Below are positions 1,880 through 14,048 of a stretch of 14,419 bases of DNA, piece after piece. A program made the position numbers and the translations under genes. Under the pieces are notes generated by a model that saw nothing but the letters and a program-made list of their open reading frames with translations, was not told where the DNA came from and made no database searches. Source of the DNA: Anaerolineales bacterium (GTDB taxonomy: Bacteria; Chloroflexota; Anaerolineae; Promineifilales; Promineifilaceae); the NCBI GenBank assembly GCA_020432595.1, contig JAGQGA010000065.1:1-14419 (forward strand). The letters are read 5' to 3'. Each line of letters starts with the position of its first letter. Position 1 is the stretch's first letter.

Positions 1880-1948
1880 TTGACAGGATTAACAAGATTT
1901 GGCAGGATTTGCCTGTTTAATCCTGAAAAACCCTGTTAATCCTGTCAA
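1880..1948. repeat. 15-bp inverted repeat built from a GGATTAACA-type word
   Basis: Arms 1880-1894 (TTGACAGGATTAACA) and 1934-1948 are perfectly complementary. The 39-base interior contains further copies of the caggattt / aatcctg words that can nest. The element overlaps the last codons of the upstream aconitase-X small-subunit gene and ends just before the ribosome binding site of the hydrolase gene. In mRNA it would form a long hairpin between the two cistrons. Confidence 0.85.
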
Positions 1949-2388
1949 GTTTTCCCATTCTCTAAAATAACCAGTTCGTTTTGCACGCAGACGGTGGTTT
2001 GGGGGAAGGCAGAGAGGTGGGCACAAACGGCCGTAAAATCCCCCCCTTCCAGCACCACCACCGGCAGCGATTGCCCATAAATTTCCTGCGCCACCACCGC
2101 CCCCAGCGCCAAAATGCTGTCCGCTTCGGCAGTGATAATTGCCGCTGGAGCCGTTTCTGCTCGCACCGCTTCCAGCAAAATGCTGCTGGCACTGCTGGAA
2201 CCGCGTCCGGCGGGCAAAATAAGCACCCGTCCCGTGACAATTTCGCCGCTTTGTGGGTGGCGACGGTCAATAATCTCCCCCGTCTGCGGATTCAGCCCGC
2301 CCCACAAACTCAGCGGCTCATCGAGAATGAGTGCTTGGCCGCTGCCGTTGCCTTCGACCAAACAAGTTGCTTGCCAATTTGTGTGCAT
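1945..2388 (-). CDS. Aconitase-X swivel domain protein (small subunit of AcnX-type dehydratase, DUF126)
   Basis: This 147-residue protein matches the swivel subunit of aconitase X. It carries LWGGLNPQTGEIIDRRHPQSG (about 28-48) and the hallmark LPAGRGSSSASS (58-69). That Ser-rich loop supplies the proposed catalytic serine facing the Fe-S subunit. Known two-subunit AcnX enzymes dehydrate either (R)-5-phosphomevalonate (archaeal-type modified mevalonate pathway) or cis-3-hydroxy-L-proline. The sequence alone does not tell me which applies. A weak AAGGG site precedes the ATG. The gene follows the large subunit after 109 bp, an unusually wide gap for tight partners, and that gap holds a copy of the 53-bp repeat. 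Confidence 0.9.
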   Translation of the reverse strand: MHTNWQATCLVEGNGSGQALILDEPLSLWGGLNPQTGEIIDRRHPQSGEIVTGRVLILPAGRGSSSASSILLEAVRAETAPAAIITAEADSILALGAVVAQEIYGQSLPVVVLEGGDFTAVCAHLSAFPQTTVCVQNELVILENGKT

Positions 2389-2412
2389 GACTACCCTTTA
2401 TCCGCTGAAAAT

Positions 2413-2465
2413 AGGACGCGGACAAACGCAGACGAACACGGATGAATCTGCGAAATCTTTGATTT
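2413..2465. repeat. 53-bp dispersed repeat, copy 2
   Basis: This is the partner of 645-697, in the same orientation. The ends match AGGACGCGGACAAACGC and AAATCTTTGATTT. It occupies half of the gap between the two aconitase-X subunit genes, so it may have been inserted into an operon that was once tighter. Confidence 0.75.
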
Positions 2466-2497
2466 ATCGCTCATAAAACCTCTGCACCCTTTGCCAT

Positions 2498-3751
2498 TCA
2501 ATTTTCCCATAACCCCTCATCCCGCCATACCTGCCCCTGCGCCGCCGAGCGTACGCACTCTTCCAGGCTGCCAAAAATGACCGAGAAGCCGATATTGCCA
2601 GGGGTGTAATGGGCAAATTTGCCCGAATTGGTCATCAGCGTGCCGCCCCGCGCCCGCACGATGGGGGTCACAACCACGCAGGTGTCCACCACAACGGTTA
2701 CACCTAGCTCTTTCAGTTCGGATAGCCAGCCGCGCTTTTGCAATGCCGCCAGCACCAGCCGGTGGGTGCAGACGATAAACTCGATGACGGGGGGAAATTG
2801 ACGCAAGATCGGCAAAAGCTGCTCAAATTCAGCCAGGGAAAAGTGGGGACTGCCCAGCGCCACCACGTCAATGGGGCCATCGGCGACGGTGGAAAGGTGG
2901 CCGCGCATTGCTTTCAGGTCGGCTACAGTGACGGTGATTTCGGCTTCGGGCGGCCGGCCGTGCAGGGCGGCTTCCAGCGTGGGGGCTTCAGGGGTGATGC
3001 CAACGGCGTGGAACAGGGCAACCGCGCCGGACGAGGCAGCGGCGGCACCCAACGCCTTAAGCTGATCTTCGCTGCTGCTGGCGGGCAGCCCGGTGATGAC
3101 GGGGATTTTGTTGGCGGCGCGGCTGCCGATGAGGTAGCCCAAGACAGGATAGAGAACATCGGCATGGCGCAGCCGGTCGGGGATGTTGTGGAGGTGAAAG
3201 ACGATTTGGCCGCGCCGGTTTTCCGGTAGATGCAGTCCATATTCGGGGGCGCGGCCGGTGATGGCGGCGCAAATGTCAATAAAATCGCCGTAACGGTTGG
3301 TGTGGGCACCGAGGACGGAGTTGGCGAAGACGATGGCGTTGCTTTCGGCCCAGGCGATTTGCTGCCCGGTTAACGGCCGTTGTTCCACCTGATAGGGCGC
3401 ACAGGTCCAAATGGGCGAGCAGCCCATTTGCTGGTAAAGCTGCATCAGGCGGGTGGCTTTTTGCGCTTGAACGGCCGTTCCCTGAAAATGTTCCGGGTGC
3501 AGCAAATCAATCGCCCCCACGTTGAGCGTCGTTGGCACCACCGTTTTCGCCCCGCCGTCCACCAGCTTTTGGGCAAAATCAAGCCCCGAATCGCCGTGGT
3601 AAAGACAGCCGTCAATGTGCGCCGATTCAATGGGAATGAGTCGCCGCGCCCCAAACACCCGCCCCATCGTCGTCAAAATACGCATGGCGATCTGAACGGC
3701 CGTTCCCCGTTCCCCCGCCAGCATCGCCTGCTCTTCCCGGCTCAGTTCCAT
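2498..3751 (-). CDS. Aconitase-X catalytic domain protein (large subunit, DUF521)
   Basis: This 417-residue protein is the Fe-S catalytic subunit of aconitase X, full length for the stand-alone large subunit. Family features include PIESAHIDGCLYHGDSGL (40-57, with C49), VPTTLNVGAIDL (72-83), CSPIWTCAPYQ (111-121, with C111 and C117), AESNAIVFANSVLGA (135-149), VVDTCVVV (354-361, with C358) and NSGKFAHYTPG (375-385). C117, C358 and one more of these Cys are the candidate cluster ligands. It pairs with the small subunit to remove water from a hydroxy-acid-type substrate. GAGGAA sits 7-12 bases before ATG 3751. Phosphomevalonate or cis-3-hydroxyproline are the known substrates of the family. The presence of an amine-oxidising Sox-type enzyme 6 kb away leans slightly toward amino-acid breakdown, but no isoprenoid or proline gene is adjacent. 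Confidence 0.92.
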   Translation of the reverse strand: MELSREEQAMLAGERGTAVQIAMRILTTMGRVFGARRLIPIESAHIDGCLYHGDSGLDFAQKLVDGGAKTVVPTTLNVGAIDLLHPEHFQGTAVQAQKATRLMQLYQQMGCSPIWTCAPYQVEQRPLTGQQIAWAESNAIVFANSVLGAHTNRYGDFIDICAAITGRAPEYGLHLPENRRGQIVFHLHNIPDRLRHADVLYPVLGYLIGSRAANKIPVITGLPASSSEDQLKALGAAAASSGAVALFHAVGITPEAPTLEAALHGRPPEAEITVTVADLKAMRGHLSTVADGPIDVVALGSPHFSLAEFEQLLPILRQFPPVIEFIVCTHRLVLAALQKRGWLSELKELGVTVVVDTCVVVTPIVRARGGTLMTNSGKFAHYTPGNIGFSVIFGSLEECVRSAAQGQVWRDEGLWEN

Positions 3752-4746: not shown

Positions 4747-5018
4747 GTAGGGGCGGGATGACCGGGGTTTACGCTGGCAACGCCGCTGGCCCCATCTCCC
4801 GGTCGTCTCGCCCTAGCCCCACCCATCCACACCGCAGACGGGTCACACATGGGCTAGACGACCGGGGTTAACGCTGGCAACGCCGCTGGCCTCATCTCCC
4901 GGTCGTCTCGCCCTTGCCCCCACCCATTTATATCGCAGACGGGTCACACATGGGCGAGACGGCGCGGTGAATAGGCCGCATGTTCTCCCTGCGCCAATCC
5001 GCGCCATCCCGCCCCTAC
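4747..5018. mobile_element. MITE-like element with 14-bp terminal inverted repeats
   Basis: GTAGGGGCGGGATG at 4747-4760 is exactly complementary to 5005-5018. The 272-bp interval encodes nothing convincing and contains two 100-bp tandem units. It lies between the diverging GNAT and EAD1-ATPase genes. Small non-coding elements with terminal inverted repeats are typical of non-autonomous mobile elements, but no target duplication is obvious and no other copy is in the window. A palindromic regulatory region is an alternative. The outer GTAGGGGCG is shared with the different repeat at 9829-9965 and 14291-14313. Confidence 0.55.
4751..4951. repeat. Two tandem 100-101-bp repeats
   Basis: Unit 1 (4751-4850) and unit 2 (4851-4951) align with about ten substitutions and one inserted base, so about 89% identity by eye. 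Most differences are C/T. A third unit begins at 4952 (GGGCGAGACG) but diverges within about 10 bases. Unit 2 contains a perfect 10-bp inverted repeat, GACGACCGGG at 4857-4866 with 4898-4907; unit 1 has a near copy. Confidence 0.85.
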
Positions 5019-5039
5019 CCTGTTTCATGGTAATCTACC

Positions 5040-5086: not shown

Positions 5087-6076
5087 ATGATCCAGCAGAT
5101 GGAGAAAACGGCCGTGAACCAAGCCAACCGCTCAACCAAATTACGCCAGCAAATTAGCCAACACTTCGACGATGAAGAACTTCGCACCCTGTGCGTGGAC
5201 GTGGGGGCTGATTACGATGACCTGGGTGGACGGGGCAAAAGCGACAAGGTGCGGGAACTGGTGGCCTGGGCGGAGCGACACGGCAAATGGGACGTGCTTG
5301 TGGCTGCCGTCCATGCTGCCCGCCCTCATCTGGCCGCCACGGACAGCCAACCGCCGCCCCACCCCGCGCCCCCAACCCCATCGCCCAACCACAACCCCTT
5401 TTTTTTCGGCGGCCGCATTACCCACAGCGACCACTTTTTCGGCCGGCAGCGAGTGCTGCGCGAACTGCGGCAGGAGCTGCAAAAGCGCAGCAATGTGTCG
5501 CTGGTGGGAGAATCGCAAATTGGCAAGTCGTCGCTGCTCTACTATTTGTACCAGAGCCGGGCGGTGTGGCTGCCCCACAGCACCGTGGCCTATATTGATT
5601 TGCAGGGGGTGCTGGATGAGGCCGACTTTTGCAAGACGGTGCTGGCGGCGCTGGGGCAGACGGGCGACAGCCTGCGCCAGCTTAAGTGGGCGCTGAGCGG
5701 GCAGGATGTGGTGCTGCTGTTTGACGAAATGGAGCGGCTGGCTGACCCAGACTTTAACCCGCGTTTGCACGATTTGCTGCGGAGCCTGTCGCAGGAGAGC
5801 CGGTTGGCGTTTTGTGTTGCCAGCCAGCAGCCGCTGGAGATTGTGTTTGCCCCGCCGCCCGGCCAAACGCTTTCGCCGTTTCACAATGTGTTTGTCAGCC
5901 AGCGGCTGGGGCCGTTTAGCGACGACGAGGCGCGGGAACTGCTGCTGACGCGGCTGCGGCCATTTCCTAACCTGTTTAGCCTGGCGGAGATGGCGCAACT
6001 GCTGGCGCAAAGCGGCGGCCATCCCGCCCGCCTACAGCGTGCCGCCCACCAGCTTTTCCGTGAGAAAACCACCTGA
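5087..6076 (+). CDS. EAD1-domain STAND-like ATPase
   Basis: This protein has about 329 residues. Residues about 17-80 form an effector-associated domain 1: LRQQISQHFDDEELRTLC, then DLGGRGKSDKVRELVAWAE. That helical adaptor is known from conflict/immune-type NTPase systems, where matching EADs bring sensors and effectors together. A Pro-rich linker (84-104) leads to NPFFFGG and HFFGRQRVL (116-124). These precede a P-loop ATPase with Walker A GESQIGKSS (141-149), Walker B DVVLLFDEME (207-216), a sensor-like CVASQQ and a C-terminal GGHPARLQRAAHQLF helix. There are no membrane segments and no effector domain, so it is probably a signalling or assembly part. Possible starts are ATG 5087, ATG 5099 and GTG 5114. 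The last has the best ribosome binding site (GGAG, 9 bases upstream) and all keep EAD1. The stop overlaps the next start by one base (TGATG). Confidence 0.85.
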   Translation: MIQQMEKTAVNQANRSTKLRQQISQHFDDEELRTLCVDVGADYDDLGGRGKSDKVRELVAWAERHGKWDVLVAAVHAARPHLAATDSQPPPHPAPPTPSPNHNPFFFGGRITHSDHFFGRQRVLRELRQELQKRSNVSLVGESQIGKSSLLYYLYQSRAVWLPHSTVAYIDLQGVLDEADFCKTVLAALGQTGDSLRQLKWALSGQDVVLLFDEMERLADPDFNPRLHDLLRSLSQESRLAFCVASQQPLEIVFAPPPGQTLSPFHNVFVSQRLGPFSDDEARELLLTRLRPFPNLFSLAEMAQLLAQSGGHPARLQRAAHQLFREKTT

Positions 6077-8919
6077 TGGAACCACAACCCCGCTTCCCCA
6101 CCTACCTTGGACCACCGCTGCCCAAAGTGCTGAATCCGCTCAACCCGCGCCATTATGGGTTGCTGCTGTTCTGGATTATTTTCCAGCCCAGCAGCCTGCT
6201 TCACTACCTGTGGCAAGCCGATACTCACCTGTTTTATCGCCGGGAATGGCCAGCCCTGCGTGACAGTTGGCGTGTTCCTGCTTACCATACATTGTATTTA
6301 CAGTCATTATTGTTGAGCATTGTGTTAGTAGCTGTTACTATAAGTTGGTTCGCCCTCCGGCTACAGGAAACGCCTGCTAATTGGCTTCGCGTGGCGTTTG
6401 CCGTGGGGGCTGGCGTGGCGGGTGTCGTAGGGACTGCCGTGGGGATTGGCGTGGCGTTTGCCGTGGGGGGTGCTGTGGGGGTTGGCGTGGTGTATGGCGT
6501 GGCGTTTGCCGTGGGGGCTGGCGTGGTAGTTGGCGTGGCGTTTGTCATGGGGGATGGCGTAGCGTTGGCCATGGCGTTTGCCGTGGGGATTGGCGTGGTA
6601 GGCATCGTGGAGGTTGGCGTGGCGTTTGCCGTAGTGGGTGCTGTGGGGGTTGGCGTGGCGTTTACTATGGTGGGTACAGTGGTGGGTGGCATGGGTGATG
6701 GTGTAGCATTTGGCGTGGCGGTTGCCATGGTGGGTAGTCGGCTTCTATTTTATCCGTTTGAGTTCTTCTTTTCCCTGCGCCTCCACCGTTGGCAAAGACA
6801 TGCTGCCTTGTGGAGCGATCTGGCCGTTTGGCCGTTGCCACAGACAAACCAACTTCTCCACCACCATCTTGCACAATCTGCACAACCTTATTGGCCTGCT
6901 GTGCAAAAAGTGGCTGCCAACCCGTTCCAGCGTGGTCGCTGCCAACGGGCAGTTACCTATTGGTTGGTGAAAAACCATTCAACCCTGGTAAAACTTTACC
7001 AACTGGTTGATGCTCCCCAACTTGATGAATATTTGGTTCCGCCAATGGATACCACGGGACGTAGAGAGTTTGGTCACTGGCCGTCCACCAAAGTTGTTTT
7101 GCTATATGAAGTGGGGCAGCAGTATGTAAGTGGTGTTGGTGGTGAGGATCCTTTAGAAAAATTTGTTTGGCGGCTCACCCGCCGCTACCGCAATATGGAG
7201 CCGACGCCGCTGGCACCGTTAGCGGCACTCCTGGGCGAACTGCTGCATCGCCAGAGCCGCCTGCAGGGAATAGATGTTGCCGTTTTATGTGAGGAAATGC
7301 TGGCTCCCGAACGGTATGAGCCAGCCCGCAGCCTGCCTTACGGCGCGGAAATTGCCGACAGCTTTGCCACCATTCGTGCTGCCCTCGGCTACCAGACCAT
7401 TGACGACCTTGCCACTTGCGCCGCTGCTTTTCGCTGGCTCGATTCGGCTGGGGAGGCGTTGCTGCGCCCCACCGTGGTGGACACTCTGCGTGGGCTGCGC
7501 GACATCAGCCAGCACGCTGCCCACTTTAAACAGCGCAGCAACGTGGCGCACCAAACAACCCTGCTCAACCTCGCCGTCGGGCAGCTCAACGAACTACAAG
7601 CCTACGTGACAACCCAGGTTCCCCTGCCGGAGCGCGGGCTGCTGGCTCGCGTCGTCGAAATTTGGCAAGACATCATCGCTGCCGCCCAGGGGGAACTGGC
7701 TCGCATCTCGCTGCAGCAAATGAGCCGCGCCGAACGGCGGCAAATTATTCGGGCAGAGACCACTGCTGCCCTCTGGGAGCGCCCCGCCGTTCCCTTTGAC
7801 AACCCCTATATGGCGGGCGACCCCGTTTATCCCCCCCTCTTTGTCGGCCGCCGCGACATTTTTAACCGCATCAGCGAGGTGTGGTCGGCCAAAGCCAGCC
7901 CCGACTCTATCATCCTCTTCGGCCACCGGCGCATGGGCAAAAGCAGCATCCTGCGTAACCTCGATCAGGCTGCCCCGCCCGGTAGCCTCATCGTCTACGC
8001 CGACATGATGGGCGAAACCAGCTTTGTCGAATCCACCGCCGACCTCCTCTTTACCTTGGCCGACAAAATCTATAGTGCCGTGCGCCAGCAGTACCCCACC
8101 GCCGACCTCACCGACCCCGCCCGTGCCGACTACAGTAGCCCCAGCCAGGCGCAGCGGCAGTTTACCCGGCTGGCGAATCAGGTGCAGCCTGTTTTAGGGG
8201 ACCAAACGCTCATTTTGGCGCTGGATGAGTTTGAGGCGGTAGAAGCGGCGGTGGCGGCGGGCAAAATCGGCCATGAGATTTACCAATTTTTGCGTACCAA
8301 AACGCAGGAGCGGTGGCTGACGCTCGTTTTTGGCGGTCTCCACACCCTCGACGAGATGAGCCGTGACTATCAGCAGCCGTTTTATGGCTCCTACACCAAT
8401 ATCCACGTTTCCTATCTGCAAAAAAACGACGCCCGTGCCCTGATTACCAACCCGACAACGGAATTTCAGCTTAACTACGAGCCAGCGGCGGTGGACAAAA
8501 TCATTGCCCTCAGCGGCGGGCAGCCCTATTTGATCCAGCAGCTTTGCCGCGATGCCGTCAACCAGCTTAACCACGCCATCTTTGACAACAACGAACGGCG
8601 CGACGGCATCATCACCGTGGCTGACGTTGAGGCGACGCTGGGGGATGCGGTCTTCCAGCGGGGCATGGTTTATTTTGACGGGGTGTGGCGGCAGACGGAA
8701 AACGAGGAGCAGCAACAGATTTTGCAAACGCTGGCGCAGCGGGAGGCAGCATGGTCGCTAGCCGACATGTCGGCGGCCACCGGTTTAACCGAAGCCCAGC
8801 TTGCCCCCCTGCTGCGCTGGGCAGAGCGGCAGGATATTTTGCAAAAACAGGGGGAAGCAGAGCCACGCTGGTCGTTTTATGTGCCGCTGCTGCGGCAGTG
8901 GCTGGCGCGGCAGTCGTGA
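6076..8919 (+). CDS. Large membrane-associated STAND-like ATPase with Val-led tetrapeptide repeats
   Basis: This 947-residue protein is translationally coupled to the EAD1-ATPase gene. In order it has hydrophobic segments at about 28-45 and 73-92, then 29 tandem tetrapeptides (106-221) that all begin with Val or Met and are rich in Gly, Ala and Val. Next come an aromatic hydrophobic stretch (about 223-234), a mostly helical region without recognised motifs (about 240-570) and a second P-loop ATPase. The ATPase has NPYMAG (576-581), FVGRR (589-593), Walker A GHRRMGKSS (616-624), Walker B LILALDEFE (712-720) and the GGQPYLIQQL helix (about 814-823), followed by a winged-helix-like tail (about 870-947). 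The same NPF/Y...FxGR entry motif in both genes shows the ATPase domains are related. The protein is probably anchored in the inner membrane with the ATPase in the cytoplasm. No nuclease or protease domain is visible, so membrane disturbance is the inferred output. I recognise the ATPase but not the whole architecture. Confidence 0.85.
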   Translation: MEPQPRFPTYLGPPLPKVLNPLNPRHYGLLLFWIIFQPSSLLHYLWQADTHLFYRREWPALRDSWRVPAYHTLYLQSLLLSIVLVAVTISWFALRLQETPANWLRVAFAVGAGVAGVVGTAVGIGVAFAVGGAVGVGVVYGVAFAVGAGVVVGVAFVMGDGVALAMAFAVGIGVVGIVEVGVAFAVVGAVGVGVAFTMVGTVVGGMGDGVAFGVAVAMVGSRLLFYPFEFFFSLRLHRWQRHAALWSDLAVWPLPQTNQLLHHHLAQSAQPYWPAVQKVAANPFQRGRCQRAVTYWLVKNHSTLVKLYQLVDAPQLDEYLVPPMDTTGRREFGHWPSTKVVLLYEVGQQYVSGVGGEDPLEKFVWRLTRRYRNMEPTPLAPLAALLGELLHRQSRLQGIDVAVLCEEMLAPERYEPARSLPYGAEIADSFATIRAALGYQTIDDLATCAAAFRWLDSAGEALLRPTVVDTLRGLRDISQHAAHFKQRSNVAHQTTLLNLAVGQLNELQAYVTTQVPLPERGLLARVVEIWQDIIAAAQGELARISLQQMSRAERRQIIRAETTAALWERPAVPFDNPYMAGDPVYPPLFVGRRDIFNRISEVWSAKASPDSIILFGHRRMGKSSILRNLDQAAPPGSLIVYADMMGETSFVESTADLLFTLADKIYSAVRQQYPTADLTDPARADYSSPSQAQRQFTRLANQVQPVLGDQTLILALDEFEAVEAAVAAGKIGHEIYQFLRTKTQERWLTLVFGGLHTLDEMSRDYQQPFYGSYTNIHVSYLQKNDARALITNPTTEFQLNYEPAAVDKIIALSGGQPYLIQQLCRDAVNQLNHAIFDNNERRDGIITVADVEATLGDAVFQRGMVYFDGVWRQTENEEQQQILQTLAQREAAWSLADMSAATGLTEAQLAPLLRWAERQDILQKQGEAEPRWSFYVPLLRQWLARQS
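6391..6738 (+). repeat. In-frame 12-bp minisatellite, 29 units
   Basis: From the GTG at 6391 the gene can be read as 29 consecutive 12-base units, loosely GTGGCGTTTGCC or GTGGGGGTTGGC. Every unit encodes Val or Met first (for example VAFA, VGAG, VGIG, VAFA, VGGA, VGVG). Spacings between successive VAFA-like units are 20, 16, 12, 12, 16, 12 and 16 residues, all multiples of four. Acidic breaks occur only around residues 159, 179 and 208. Confidence 0.9.
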
Positions 8920-10104: not shown

Positions 10105-12312
10105 ATGAGAGTGATCGTTGATCAAAAACCGATCCCGTTTGCCCCTGGCGACAGCCTGTTGGTTGCCATGCTGCGGGCGGGCGAACACCCCACCGGGGGC
10201 GGCTGTCTGTGTCTGGGCGGCGACTGCCCCAACTGCTTGGCAACCGTAGACGGCATTTCTTACGTCCGCACCTGCCAGGTGGCGGCCAAACCGGGCATGG
10301 TGGTCGAACGTCACCCCGCCGATGGCTACCCGCTATTACCCGACGACAGCAAGCACCGCGCCGAAGTCCACGCCCACAACCACCATTGCGATGTGGTGGT
10401 TATTGGGCAAGGGGAGTCGGGGCGGGCGGCATTGGCCGAAGCGGAAGTGGCGGGCAAGCAGGCGATCGGGCTGGATGTTGCCAATGGGCAAGAGGCGATT
10501 GGCATTTACAGCGGGCCGCTGGTGGTGGCGCGAACCGAGGCCGGAATGCTCCACATCCACGCCGAAGAGGTGGTGGTGGCAACGGGGGCGGCGGAAATTC
10601 AGCCCGTGGTGCCGGGGTCGGAACTGGCGGGGCTGTTTACCAGCCGGGCGGCCGAACAATTGGCGGCGGCGGGGCTGGATTTGGGTCGGGTTGTAGCAGT
10701 CGGCACGCCACCGGTCGGCATTGAATGCGAATTGGCAAGCGGCGACCTGCTGCGGTTTGAAGGGCAGGAAGGGCGCATAACGGCCGTTATTACCCAATCC
10801 ACCGACGGCAGTGAAAACCGCTACCCGTGTGAAACGGGCGTTGTCGGGCTGGGTCTCTACCCCCGTGATGCCCTCACCCGCATGGGCCACCAGCTACCCG
10901 TTCGCGCCGTGGGGGATGCCACCCGCGAGGCCGACATTCCGGCTTGCCCCGGCGAAGGGATCATTTGCCCCTGCTCCGGCGTGTCGGTGGCCGATTTGGA
11001 GCGCATTTGGGAGCAAGGCTTTCAGGAAATGGAGCTGGTTAAGCGGGCGACGCTGGCCGGAACGGGAACGTGCCAGGGTGGCGTTTGCACCCCTTACCTC
11101 CGCAGCTTTTTGCTGGCAAAGGGGAAGACGCTGCAGCCCGCTTTCACGGCTCGTCCGGTTAACCGGCAGTTGACGCTGGGCGAAATTGCCGCCGGAGCGC
11201 ACCACCACCCGACGGCTCGCACCGCTTTGGACGGGGAACACCGCCGCTTGGGGGCGAAAATGGAGCGCAGCGGCGGCTGGTGGCGGCCGTGGAACTATGG
11301 CGACGTGTGGGCGGAGTATTGGGCGGTGCGGGAAGCGGTTTCGATTATGGATGTTAGCACCCTGGGCAAGATGATTGTCTCGGGGCCGGATGTGCTGGAA
11401 CTGCTGGAGCGGCTGTATCCGACGAAGGTGAGTACGATCAAGAACGGCCGTTCGCGCTACGTCCTCCTCCTCGATGAGCGGGGCTACGTTTTTGACGACG
11501 GCATGATTTGCAAAGACAGCGACACCCAGTACACCCTCACCTTCACCAGCGGCGGCTCCAGCCACGCCGAAATGTGGGTGCGCGACTGGGCCGAAAGCTG
11601 GGGGCTGGACGTGCGGATTTTGCTGCAAACCCAGCGGCTGGGGGCGATCAATGTCACCGGGCCGCTGGCAAACGAGTTGCTGGCCCGCGCCGGGCTGGAC
11701 AACCCGCCCCCCTATTTGGGTCACATTGAGGCAACGGTGGCCGGGGTTCCCTGCCGCATCTTCCGCCTCAGCTTCACCGGGGAACTGTCCTATGAACTGC
11801 ACCACCCCGTTGAACAGTCGGTGACGCTGTGGCGGGGGCTGCTGGAACTGGGGCAAGAGCTGGGCATTCGGCCGCATGGGTTGGAAACATTGCTCAAGCT
11901 GCGGCTGGAAAAAGGCCATATCATCGTCGGGCAAGACACCGACATGGACTCAACCCCGCGCCGTCTGCACCACGAATGGGCGATTAAGCTGGACAAGGCG
12001 TTTTTTATCGGCCGGCAGGCGGTGCTGCGTACCAACAAAATTCCGCTAGACAAGCAGCTTGTGGGGCTGGAAATGGTGGGGCAGCCGGCCGGATATGCGC
12101 CGCTGGAAGGGGGGGTGATTTGGCACCAGGGCAACTATGCTGGGATTGTGACCTCGGCTACCTATTCGCCCGCGTTGGGGAAGACGGTGCTGCTGGGCTG
12201 GCTTTGCCTGCAAGATGGGGAGCTGCCGACTGAGGTGGAGATTGAAGGCAAGACGGCGCGGCGGGTTGAGGTGCCGTTTTATGATAAGGAGGCGAGTCGT
12301 GCCAGAGCTTAA
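10105..12312 (+). CDS. soxA: Sarcosine-oxidase-type alpha subunit, short, with two Fe-S cysteine sets
   Basis: This 735-residue protein contains three parts. The first is an N-terminal Fer2-type [2Fe-2S] domain with C36-x4-C41-x2-C44 and C57 (in GGDCPNCLATVDG). The second is a reduced FAD/NAD-binding region (about 95-285) with VVVIGQGESGRAAL (97-110) and EEVVVATGA (154-162). The third is a BFD-like [2Fe-2S] motif with C288-x-C290 and C323-x4-C328, leading into a GCV_T-like folate-binding domain (about 370-735, with YVLLLDERGYVFDDG). It matches heterotetrameric sarcosine oxidase alpha, but that protein is about 960-1000 residues and, as I recall, lacks these Cys. The expected reaction is oxidative N-demethylation of an N-methyl amino acid, with the one-carbon unit passed to tetrahydrofolate. 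AAGGA lies before ATG 10105. The gene overlaps the next one by 14 bases. Confidence 0.85.
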   Translation: MRVIVDQKPIPFAPGDSLLVAMLRAGEHPTGGGCLCLGGDCPNCLATVDGISYVRTCQVAAKPGMVVERHPADGYPLLPDDSKHRAEVHAHNHHCDVVVIGQGESGRAALAEAEVAGKQAIGLDVANGQEAIGIYSGPLVVARTEAGMLHIHAEEVVVATGAAEIQPVVPGSELAGLFTSRAAEQLAAAGLDLGRVVAVGTPPVGIECELASGDLLRFEGQEGRITAVITQSTDGSENRYPCETGVVGLGLYPRDALTRMGHQLPVRAVGDATREADIPACPGEGIICPCSGVSVADLERIWEQGFQEMELVKRATLAGTGTCQGGVCTPYLRSFLLAKGKTLQPAFTARPVNRQLTLGEIAAGAHHHPTARTALDGEHRRLGAKMERSGGWWRPWNYGDVWAEYWAVREAVSIMDVSTLGKMIVSGPDVLELLERLYPTKVSTIKNGRSRYVLLLDERGYVFDDGMICKDSDTQYTLTFTSGGSSHAEMWVRDWAESWGLDVRILLQTQRLGAINVTGPLANELLARAGLDNPPPYLGHIEATVAGVPCRIFRLSFTGELSYELHHPVEQSVTLWRGLLELGQELGIRPHGLETLLKLRLEKGHIIVGQDTDMDSTPRRLHHEWAIKLDKAFFIGRQAVLRTNKIPLDKQLVGLEMVGQPAGYAPLEGGVIWHQGNYAGIVTSATYSPALGKTVLLGWLCLQDGELPTEVEIEGKTARRVEVPFYDKEASRARA

Positions 12313-12685
12313 TCGTTTACCAGCAACGCGAATTGTATCTACAGCATTGGATGGGGCGGTTTGGCCGGAGGATCGGCTGGTGCTGAGAACGGCCGTTGAT
12401 GAACTGCTCATCATCCCCCCCGTGGCCGACGTGAGCAGCGTCACCAGCCGCGACCCATACGCCATTGTGGTGGAAGATGCCAGCTACGCCGGGGTGTGGC
12501 TGGGGGCGGATGAAGCAGCAGCCATTTTGCAGCGGCACTGCGAATGGCGGGTGGGAGAACAGCGACCCCTCTTTACCCAGGGAGCCATCGCTGGGATTGC
12601 TACCAAGCTGTGGCTGGAAGCCGACCGCGTGCTGTTTGTCGTCCCCGCGCCGTATGCGGCGGAGTTTGAGGAAAGAATTGTTTGA
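12299..12685 (+). CDS. soxG: Sarcosine-oxidase-type gamma subunit (SoxG-like)
   Basis: This protein of about 128 residues starts at GTG 12299, behind an excellent AAGGAGG site that lies within the end of the alpha-subunit gene. The second half (DASYAGVWLGADEAAAIL through FVVPAPYAAEFEERI) follows the GcvT-like pattern of SoxG. In that pattern a beta strand, a Gly-Ala helix and a closing 'vP..ya..f' helix pack on the alpha subunit. It is shorter than usual SoxG (about 180-200 residues). Sequence similarity alone is weak; its position between the alpha and beta genes gives much of the support. Confidence 0.65.
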   Translation: MPELNRLPATRIVSTALDGAVWPEDRLVLRTAVDELLIIPPVADVSSVTSRDPYAIVVEDASYAGVWLGADEAAAILQRHCEWRVGEQRPLFTQGAIAGIATKLWLEADRVLFVVPAPYAAEFEERIV

Positions 12686-12687
12686 GC

Positions 12688-12740
12688 GTAGGGTGTAGGG
12701 TGTAGGGTGTGGAATCCACTCCCTACACCCCACTCCCCAC
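12688..12740. repeat. 25-bp hairpin of GTAGGGT words between SoxG and SoxB genes
   Basis: Arm 12688-12712 (GTAGGGTGTAGGGTGTAGGG...) pairs with 12716-12740 at 21 of 25 positions around a 3-base loop. It begins two bases after the gamma-subunit stop and ends 14 bases before the beta-subunit start, where no ribosome binding site is visible. Confidence 0.85.
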
Positions 12741-12754
12741 TCTCTTCCTAACCT

Positions 12755-13963
12755 ATGAACGAATTTCAAGAAAAACTGGTTCACTTCACCTGGCCGGAGC
12801 CAAAAAAGAGCTACGATGTCGTTATTGTGGGGGGCGGTGGGCATGGGCTGGCGGCGGCGTATTATTTGGCGACGCGGCATGGCATTACCAATGTGGCGGT
12901 GCTGGAGCGCAACTACATTGGTGGCGGCAATTCTGGGCGCAACACCACCATCATTCGCGCCAACTATGGCATTCCCGAAGCGGTGCGCTTTTACCAGCAC
13001 AGCCTAGAGCTTTACCAAACGCTGGAGGCGGAGACGGGGCGCTGGATTATGCACCAGGAGAAGGGGATTCTCTGGATGGCGCACAGCGAAATTGGGATGC
13101 AGCAGCAGAAGGCGCGGGCGGCGATTAACCGCGCGTTTGGGGCTAAGACGGAGTTTTTGACCCCGGAGGAGATTCTTAAAGTTTGCCCGGAGATTGACCT
13201 GACGGGTGGCGGCGTGTGGCCGGTGGTGGGTGGCTCGTATAACACTGAGGCGGCGACGGCGCGGCATGACCGGGTGAATTGGGCGTTGGCGGAAGGGGCG
13301 ATGATGCGGGGGGTGCATGTGCATCAGAAAACGGCCGTTACTGGCCTGCTCATGGAAGGCAACCGAGTCACCGGCGTGCAAACGGACAAAGGGCCAATTT
13401 CGGCCGGCATTGTCATGAGTGCCGTTGGCGGCCACGTCACCTCGCTGGCGGCGATGGCTGGGCTGCGGCTCCCCATTCGCACCCACCCCCTGCAAGCGTT
13501 TGTCACCAACCATTACGCCCGCACCTTCCACCCCATCGTGGCCTCCACCAATTTGCTCTTTTACGTTTCGCAAACGGCGCGGGGCGAAATGCTGATGGGG
13601 GCGGAGATTGACCCGCAGCCCAGTTACAACTACCGTTCCGACCACCACTTTTTGCAAAGCTGCGCCTTCCGCGCCACCACGCTGCTCCCTTTCCTGCGCG
13701 ATTTGCGCGTCTTGCGGCAGTGGACGGGTGTCTGCGACATGAGTCCCGACTATTCGCCGATTATGGGCAAAACGAGCGTGGACGGCTTTTACATCACCAC
13801 CGGCTGGGGAACGTGGGGCTTCAAAGCCATTCCCGCCAGTGGCGAACAGATGGCGCAGCTTATCGCCACGGGCGAAACGCCGGAGATGATCGCCCCCTTT
13901 GCCCTTTCGCGTTTTGCTGAAGATCGTTTAATGGCGGATCGCGGTTCGGCCGGCACGCATTAG
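12755..13963 (+). CDS. soxB: Sarcosine-oxidase-type beta subunit (FAD/FMN amine-oxidising)
   Basis: This 402-residue protein has the length and motifs of the beta subunit of heterotetrameric sarcosine oxidase. The dinucleotide motif is DVVIVGGGGHGLAAAYYL (21-38). The family run GGNSGRNTTIIRANYG (57-72) follows. TARHDRV (168-174) includes His171, matching the His that carries covalent FMN in this family. The C-terminus has the FAD-side WGTWGFKAIPASGEQMA run. It binds the amine substrate and takes electrons from the methylamine carbon-nitrogen bond. A TATGA start without a clear ribosome binding site lies directly behind a hairpin, so its translation rate may depend on mRNA structure. The nearest alternative is another DAO-family amino-acid dehydrogenase beta subunit, for example a hydroxyproline dehydrogenase, but the delta gene downstream argues for the Sox type. 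Confidence 0.9.
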   Translation: MNEFQEKLVHFTWPEPKKSYDVVIVGGGGHGLAAAYYLATRHGITNVAVLERNYIGGGNSGRNTTIIRANYGIPEAVRFYQHSLELYQTLEAETGRWIMHQEKGILWMAHSEIGMQQQKARAAINRAFGAKTEFLTPEEILKVCPEIDLTGGGVWPVVGGSYNTEAATARHDRVNWALAEGAMMRGVHVHQKTAVTGLLMEGNRVTGVQTDKGPISAGIVMSAVGGHVTSLAAMAGLRLPIRTHPLQAFVTNHYARTFHPIVASTNLLFYVSQTARGEMLMGAEIDPQPSYNYRSDHHFLQSCAFRATTLLPFLRDLRVLRQWTGVCDMSPDYSPIMGKTSVDGFYITTGWGTWGFKAIPASGEQMAQLIATGETPEMIAPFALSRFAEDRLMADRGSAGTH

Positions 13964-13964
13964 T

Positions 13965-14036
13965 TTGGTAATCAGTAATCAGTTATCAGTTATCAGTTGC
14001 GGCACTGATTACCGATGACCGATTACTGATTACCAA
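13965..14036. repeat. 33-bp hairpin of TAATCAGT words between SoxB and SoxD genes
   Basis: Arm 13965-13997 pairs with 14004-14036 at 29 of 33 positions around a 6-base loop (TGCGGC). Each arm is made of about four loose copies of a 7-8-base TAATCAGT word. It begins two bases after the beta-subunit stop and ends 12 bases before the delta-subunit ATG. Confidence 0.88.
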
Positions 14037-14048
14037 TTACTGAAAAAA

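What the first reader, a model, noticed from the sequence alone, without database searches (positions are those of the whole stretch)
5087..8919. Two-ATPase EAD1 module with a membrane repeat partner: candidate new conflict system
Two adjacent genes share a related ATPase entry motif (NPF/Y...FxGR) and overlap by one base. The first carries EAD1, an adaptor domain known from NTPase-based conflict systems. The second adds two hydrophobic segments and a 116-residue Val/Gly/Ala repeat before its ATPase. No known nuclease, protease or TIR effector is visible. I infer a sensor/adaptor ATPase that assembles with a membrane ATPase whose repeat could alter the membrane.
Basis: partly seen in the sequence, partly recalled or inferred. 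Interest (0 to 1): 0.85.

Follow-up and report, generated by a model that had tools for sequence, protein, structure and literature searches.

The report
Membrane-anchored two-ATPase immune switch pair
Two neighbouring genes encode a membrane-bound ATPase and a small partner ATPase whose front end is swapped between enzyme and adaptor domains in relatives, which looks like a bacterial counterpart of animal and plant cell-death alarm complexes.

Summary
The two genes are real, overlap by one base and both carry ATPases with intact Walker motifs. The adaptor is EAD7 (Pfam 74.6 bits, cut-off 32), not EAD1 (20.0, cut-off 24.2). The pair is a conserved unit: in 80 loci from Cyanobacteriota, Chloroflexota and Gammaproteobacteria, 61 of 81 gene-2 copies have a gene-1 relative just upstream on the same strand; 12 of the other 20 sit at contig ends. 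Gene 2 has a membrane region (usually Gly/Val/Ala-rich), a helical middle domain and a STAND-type ATPase with winged helix; closest solved folds are two archaeal ATPases, then Orc2, CED-4 and the NRC4 resistosome. The front of gene 1 varies: EAD7, EAD4, bDLD1, trypsin, TIR, CHAT, HNH, NNH2, Band_7. Best reading: gene 2 is membrane sensor and switch, gene 1 the effector arm; here it carries only EAD7 and would recruit EAD7-tagged effectors made elsewhere. The membrane repeat also occurs in copies with their own enzyme, so it is more likely anchor, sensor or oligomeriser than the killing part. Nothing is assayed, and no whole genome is held for the window. New variant of published EAD/STAND conflict systems; I saw this membrane pair in none of the paper listings or passages.

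The parts
5087..6076 (+). gene 1: EAD7-ATPase protein, 329 aa (an in-frame ATG at 5027 could add 20 aa; the 95% identical relative P0122 is 349 aa)
5141..5326 (+). EAD7 adaptor domain (residues 19-80), helical
   Evidence: Pfam PF19960 74.6 bits, cut-off 32; AF2 helices
5393..6073 (+). gene 1 ATPase (residues 103-329), AAA_22/nSTAND1-like, no winged helix after it; Walker A residues 141-148, Walker B Asp213
   Evidence: Pfam AAA_22 41.4 bits over cut-off 27, nSTAND1 29.9 over 27.1 on a short stretch; G141, G146, K147, S148, D213 in 94 of 94 rows of A3; Walker A pattern in 180 of 182 gene 1 sequences; fold
6076..8919 (+). gene 2: membrane ATPase, 947 aa
6076..6270 (+). conserved N-terminal segment of gene 2 (residues 1-65)
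   Evidence: W33, F36, L41, Y44 nearly invariant in the 41 rows of A1
6271..6777 (+). membrane region (residues 66-234), hydrophobic, Gly/Val/Ala-rich
   Evidence: hydropathy; AF2 helices, partly low confidence
6388..6747 (+). V/G/A repeat (residues 105-224), 12-residue period; DNA arrays of period 12, 36, 60 and 72
   Evidence: shuffle test
6793..7788 (+). helical middle domain (residues 240-571), no Pfam match; candidate sensor or regulatory part
7789..8565 (+). gene 2 ATPase (residues 572-830); Walker A 616-623, Walker B 712-718, GxP motif 815-817
   Evidence: Pfam AAA_16 33.2 bits, cut-off 32.6; G616, G621, K622, D717, E718 in 83 of 83 rows of A4; Walker A pattern in 180 of 181 gene 2 sequences; fold
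8617..8910 (+). winged helix at the C-terminus (residues 848-945)
   Evidence: AF2; 2qen and CED-4 alignments run to 945-947; HTH_IclR 15.5 bits, below cut-off 22

Best explanation
A two-component, membrane-anchored STAND (NLR-like) switch. Gene 2 sits in the inner membrane by its Gly-rich helical bundle and senses a cue with its membrane or middle domain (inferred). Its STAND ATPase then changes nucleotide state and oligomerises (inferred from fold and motifs). The short gene 1 ATPase, which lacks a winged helix and any visible sensor, joins the assembly through ATPase-ATPase contacts (inferred) and clusters whatever is fused to its front end. In many relatives that is an enzyme (trypsin, TIR, CHAT, HNH) or an adaptor (EAD7, EAD4, bDLD1). 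In this window it is EAD7 alone, so the cluster would recruit EAD7-tagged effectors encoded elsewhere, leading to death or arrest that limits phage spread (inferred). Shown: the pair, its conservation, the intact motifs, the varying front end, and EAD7 fused to effectors in related genomes. Not shown: any activity, interaction, trigger or phage protection.
Against: No experiment. No second EAD7 lies in the window, and no genome is held for it. G020, G014 and G003 do not show an EAD7-type gene 1: in G020 it is a TIR type, in G014 unassigned, in G003 cut off by the contig end. Of the two genomes with an EAD7-type gene 1, G001 has two further EAD7 proteins, neither with a clear enzyme (one EAD7 alone, one with a TRADD-N-like hit below cut-off), and G002 has none. 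The front-end classes are clustered on the tree (shuffled mean 46.5 changes, as low as 27 in 0 of 200), so they are swapped repeatedly but not freely. The window's other scanned genes are not known defence genes. 34 of 54 locus N-termini match no Pfam family at E 0.001. Two gene 1 sequences lack the Walker A pattern: L071 and L066, the latter a 177 aa piece. No PADLOC or NCBIfam cut-off is met (PADLOC gives none).
Confidence: 0.6

Rival explanations
1. The membrane repeat is the effector: on activation the Gly-rich helices of gene 2 open or reshape the membrane, and gene 1 only passes on the signal.
For: Glycine at every fourth residue is typical of tightly packed or pore-forming helices (recalled). 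It is widespread: 124 of 147 members with a long hydrophobic span (151 examined) have Gly-Gly spacing of 4 at z of 3 or more. In this window no enzymatic effector is visible.
Against: It is kept in 11 of the 14 locus pairs whose gene 1 has a trypsin, CHAT or TIR front end. In the window's own copy the spacing-4 glycine signal is weak (z 1.1; the 12-residue period is strong). The model of residues 156-205 is below pLDDT 50, so no pore geometry can be read.
Confidence: 0.15
2. Not immunity: an envelope-stress, developmental or transcription-linked STAND signalling pair of multicellular bacteria.
For: Many cyanobacterial gene 1 N-termini fall in two families without a Pfam hit (15 and 10 loci), and 2 of 54 match HTH_31. 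The window's scanned neighbours are mostly metabolic.
Against: TIR, CHAT, trypsin, HNH, bDLD1, EAD4 and EAD7 in the same slot, with repeated changes, are the kind of variation that PMC7159879 and PMC8195603 (passages seen) take as the mark of counter-invader systems.
Confidence: 0.15
3. It is a published family under another name: the Npun2340/2341 STAND family of Leipe 2004 (its name suggests two neighbouring Nostoc genes), or the two-gene nSTAND2 system.
For: PMC8195603 names the Npun2340/2341 family (passage seen) and a mobile two-gene operon whose two proteins are both STAND NTPases (section read). Many of the 80 loci are from Nostoc and its relatives. Gene 2 gives a weak nSTAND2 match (21.5 bits). 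One gene 1 relative (L071) lacks the Walker A pattern, as one partner does in the nSTAND2 system.
Against: For nSTAND2: below the cut-off of 24; Walker A kept in nearly every sequence of both families, whereas the paper says that one partner has eroded; effectors there are most commonly GT4 or HEPN. For Npun2340/2341: Leipe 2004 could not be read (the only paper listed for that name was PMC8195603), so it is untested.
Confidence: 0.25

Closest known systems
EAD principle / EAD-coupled conflict systems (PMC7159879 and PMC8195603, passages seen)
   Same: A small helical adaptor fused to a core NTPase component, with further copies of the same adaptor fused to effectors in the genome; reported as enriched in multicellular bacteria
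   Different: The core here is a pair of STAND-type ATPases with a membrane partner, not MoxR-vWA, GTPase-GAP1 or EACC1-caspase
Two-gene nSTAND2 system (PMC8195603, section 15 read, Fig. 6C legend)
   Same: Two neighbouring genes, both with STAND NTPase cores, variable effector fused to one of them
   Different: There one NTPase is eroded and effectors are most commonly GT4 or HEPN; here Walker A is kept in both families, front ends are trypsin, TIR, CHAT, EADs, and the partner is in the membrane
Animal CED-4/Apaf-1 and plant NLR resistosomes
   Same: Fold of the gene 2 ATPase plus winged helix; adaptor-driven recruitment of death enzymes is the proposed likeness
   Different: Split over two proteins, membrane-anchored; WD40 is inserted beside the membrane region in some relatives
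Bacterial CARD-NLR-like system lypABC (PMC13236601, passages seen)
   Same: NLR-like ATPase in an operon resembling an immune system
   Different: Three-gene operon; the passages seen mention no membrane ATPase partner

Membership tests
EAD7 (PF19960) | Match to the Pfam model above its cut-off | tested here: met
   74.6 bits, cut-off 32, residues 19-80
EAD1 (PF19955) | Match to the Pfam model above its cut-off | tested here: not met
   20.0 bits, cut-off 24.2
STAND NTPase, gene 2 | P-loop ATPase with Walker A and B, GxP motif and a following winged helix (definition recalled) | tested here: met
STAND NTPase, gene 1 | Same features, winged helix included | tested here: not met
   Walker motifs and GHP present, nSTAND1 29.9 bits over 27.1 but only on residues 112-151; the protein ends at residue 329 and the model shows no winged helix. 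STAND-like, truncated
nSTAND2 two-gene system | Match to nSTAND2 (PF20702) above cut-off | tested here: not met
   21.5 bits against 24 for gene 2, none listed for gene 1
nSTAND2 two-gene system | One of the two NTPases eroded | tested here: not met
   Both window proteins keep Walker A and B; Walker A in 180 of 182 and 180 of 181 relatives
MoxR-vWA ternary systems | MoxR and vWA genes alongside | tested here: not met
   No such domain in the ten window proteins scanned; only the 14.4 kb window could be looked at
[quoted passage not shown]
   No genome held for the window. In relatives: an EAD7-type pair has further EAD7 copies in 1 of 2 genomes, without a clear enzyme; an EAD4-type pair has further EAD4 copies in 2 of 2, fused domains not examined (G006, G007)
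Npun2340/2341 STAND family | Sequence membership | not tested
   Only the name was found
Anti-phage defence system | Protects cells from phage | not testable with these tools
   Best PADLOC match 17.1 bits for gene 1, none for gene 2

The most novel reading that the evidence does not exclude
A widespread, undescribed class of membrane-embedded bacterial inflammasome: a near-constant pair of STAND-type ATPases in which a glycine-zipper membrane protein (some with a WD40 propeller inserted beside its membrane helices) is the sensor and the partner is a plug-in effector cartridge, shared by Chloroflexota, cyanobacteria and Beggiatoa-type bacteria. In EAD-type copies it would act as a hub that deploys several effectors of the genome at once.
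Probability: 0.35. Interest if true: 0.8.

Novelty: new variant of a known kind. Interest (0 to 1): 0.6.

Why it matters
If true, it adds a membrane-bound, two-protein form to the bacterial relatives of NLRs and apoptosomes, with sensor and effector arm in separate genes. That makes two open questions testable: how EADs choose their effectors, and whether bacterial STAND switches watch the cell envelope. The pair also occurs in Nostoc-type cyanobacteria, some of which can be grown and manipulated (recalled).

Tried and rejected
Rejected: EAD1 label; nSTAND2 membership; MoxR-vWA system in the window; a third gene of the operon in the window (neighbours are an opposite-strand GNAT gene and a downstream DUF1697 gene). 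A neighbour of 178-212 aa in 16 loci, all cyanobacterial, lies on the opposite strand, so it is not in the operon.

Led nowhere: genome scan with the single sequence (53 pattern matches, none confirmed). PHROGs gave phrog_6841 (unknown function, 27.3 bits) for gene 2 and two weaker matches for gene 1. Solved-structure sequence searches gave nothing. A search with the N-terminal 100 residues of gene 2 gave 5 proteins, the query included, one a WD40 variant. The middle domain (240-571) is barely covered by the fold rows, so its fold is untested, not shown to be new. The EAD7 domain's fold was likewise not tested by itself.

Limits and dropped rows: only the best 80 of 212 confirmed loci were kept. 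A pair needed a same-strand gene-1 hit over 90 bits and a gap of -400 to 2600 nt; gene starts were taken at the first possible start codon, so overlaps are approximate. Seven of the 61 gene 1 N-termini were too short. The tree used 61 locus pairs, 12 pairs of database proteins joined only by equal longest-contig lengths (inferred, not seen as neighbours) and the window; 7 rows had no label; L001/P0066 and L002/P0068 are the same sequences; four further equal-length pairs with other front ends were left out. Alignments A3 (77 of 121 database gene 1 proteins, 17 of 61 locus ones) and A4 (68 of 120, 15 of 61) are subsets that I chose. A Walker B pattern was too strict to use and missed many sequences. 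The trypsin motif test found all three motifs in 15 of 26 by a strict pattern, CHAT His and Cys in 6 of 9; misses may be pattern failures. The labels HTHa, HTHb and HTHc are mine and not confirmed by Pfam. EAD7 proteins scanned with Pfam: 13 of 17 matches in G003, 2 further in G001, 2 of 3 in G005, 12 of 12 in G020 and 6 of 12 in G014.

Literature: a paired membrane STAND system was sought. I saw listings and abstract starts, plus passages of PMC7159879, PMC8195603 (one section read), PMC10907252 and PMC13236601; none of that describes this pair. The library lacks most subscription papers.
Full report
What is there. Gene 1 (5087-6076, + strand) encodes 329 aa and gene 2 (6076-8919, + strand) 947 aa; the stop of the first and the start of the second share one base. 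Gene 1 is EAD7 (residues 19-80) joined by a proline-rich linker to an AAA_22/nSTAND1-type ATPase; EAD1 is below its cut-off. Gene 2 has a conserved N-terminal segment, a Gly/Val/Ala-rich membrane region, a helical middle domain without a Pfam match, and an AAA_16-type ATPase ending in a winged helix. PADLOC and NCBIfam give no convincing match.

More than chance. Residues 105-224 of gene 2 repeat with a 12-residue period (7.3 s.d., 0 of 2000 shuffles reaching it) and more weakly with 4 (2.3 s.d.). Across the family, 124 of 147 members with a hydrophobic span of at least 80 residues (151 examined) show glycines spaced by 4 at z of 3 or more, but the window's own copy does not (z 1.1). The repeat is also visible in the DNA (period 12 to 72). 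So the repeat is a family feature, with what looks like local expansion here.

The pair is a unit. A profile scan of one genome per species gave 80 loci, the best of 212 confirmed: 60 Cyanobacteriota, 14 Chloroflexota, 6 Gammaproteobacteria. They hold 81 full or partial gene-2 ATPases over 300 bits; 61 have a gene-1 relative upstream on the same strand (49, 8 and 4 in the three phyla), 57 of these with at most 500 nt between, 22 overlapping or sharing the stop. Of the other 20, 12 begin at or within 709 nt of a contig end; 8 (L023, L036, one copy in L042, L046, L049, L053, L059, L074) have upstream DNA but no gene 1 by my rule. In L023 a weaker gene-1 relative stands further upstream.

The front end of gene 1 is a cartridge. 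Among the 120 listed of 207 relatives, my count is 47 EAD7, 22 trypsin, 13 TIR, 5 PF20689 (bDLD1), 3 CHAT, 3 PF22734 (NNH2), 2 HNH, 1 Band_7; three carry EAD7 with trypsin and three EAD7 with TIR. In these six the EAD7 comes first and the ATPase last, with the trypsin motifs in between in the three trypsin cases. Among 54 locus N-termini of at least 44 aa (of 61), Pfam finds CHAT 6, TIR 4, trypsin 4, EAD4 2, EAD7 2, HTH_31 2, which leaves 34 without a match. On the gene 2 ATPase tree the class changes at least 27 times among 67 labelled rows, yet classes are clustered (shuffled mean 46.5, as low in 0 of 200); the window's nearest rows, P0006, P0013 and P0042, are trypsin types by contig-length pairing. 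So the window's gene 1 seems to have an adaptor where close relatives have an enzyme.

Where the effector could be. EAD7 proteins were found in 4 of 5 and 4 of 15 genomes reached from the loci, in none of the 8 cyanobacteria searched. In G020 and G014, which hold complete pairs (L071, L013), EAD7 is fused to SIR2, TIR plus FGE-sulfatase, FGE-sulfatase, HD-CE plus receiver, and CHAT (G020, 12 of 12 matches scanned), and to TIR, NB-ARC, and trypsin plus TIR (G014, 6 of 12 scanned); the other scanned ones had no second domain over its cut-off. In G003, which holds gene 2 with gene 1 cut off, it is fused to TIR (L088), TIR plus FGE-sulfatase (L098) and Roc-COR (L085, L092), and one EAD7 protein has a sub-cut-off nSTAND1 match (L094); in G005, likewise cut off, to FGE-sulfatase (L084) and, below the EAD7 cut-off, to a caspase (L090). 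But the pairs in G020 and G014 are not EAD7 types. Of the two genomes with a visible EAD7-type gene 1, G001 has two more EAD7 proteins without a clear enzyme and G002 none. EAD4 is in 7 of 8 cyanobacterial genomes, and both with an EAD4-type gene 1 have further EAD4 proteins. This fits recruitment in trans but does not prove it; for the window's own genome it cannot be tested.

Known or new. Published work covers EADs, nSTAND1 and a two-gene nSTAND2 system (PMC7159879 passages; PMC8195603 passages and section 15; PMC10907252 passages). The pair differs from nSTAND2 in Walker sites, front ends, membrane partner and Pfam score. The Npun2340/2341 family named there could be the cyanobacterial form; I could not check. 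I file it as a new variant of a known kind.

Noticed in passing
4751-4961: Two tandem copies of a 100-base unit, each holding an imperfect inverted repeat of about 16 bases, between the opposite-strand GNAT gene and the pair.
   Followed up: no
L025, L029, L030, L033, L037, L038, L043, L056, L058, L060, L063, L065, L068, L070, L073, L077: In 16 cyanobacterial loci a protein of 178-212 aa that looks exported with an N-terminal hydrophobic helix is encoded on the opposite strand 137-451 nt upstream of gene 1; possible divergently transcribed partner.
   Followed up: partly
P0242; L020:9998-13813: Gene 2 relatives with a WD40 propeller inserted beside the membrane helices.
   Followed up: partly
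L013:12894-16655: A third, overlapping gene downstream of the pair encodes a GAF domain plus another ATPase related to gene 2, 1254 aa.
   Followed up: no
L071:8445-9989: TIR-type gene 1 without the Walker A pattern: an eroded partner in this family.
   Followed up: no
1945-3751 (minus strand): Two neighbouring genes for aconitase X: AcnX (2498-3751) and its swivel domain (1945-2388).
   Followed up: no
10105-13963: Fused Fer2 / GCV_T protein of 735 aa and an FAD-dependent oxidoreductase, resembling sarcosine oxidase subunits.
   Followed up: no
6282-6728 (minus strand): Long antisense open frame of 148 aa over the V/G/A repeat, probably a by-product of the repeat.
   Followed up: no
12688-12742 and 13971-14040: Short tandem repeats of 7 bases.
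   Followed up: no
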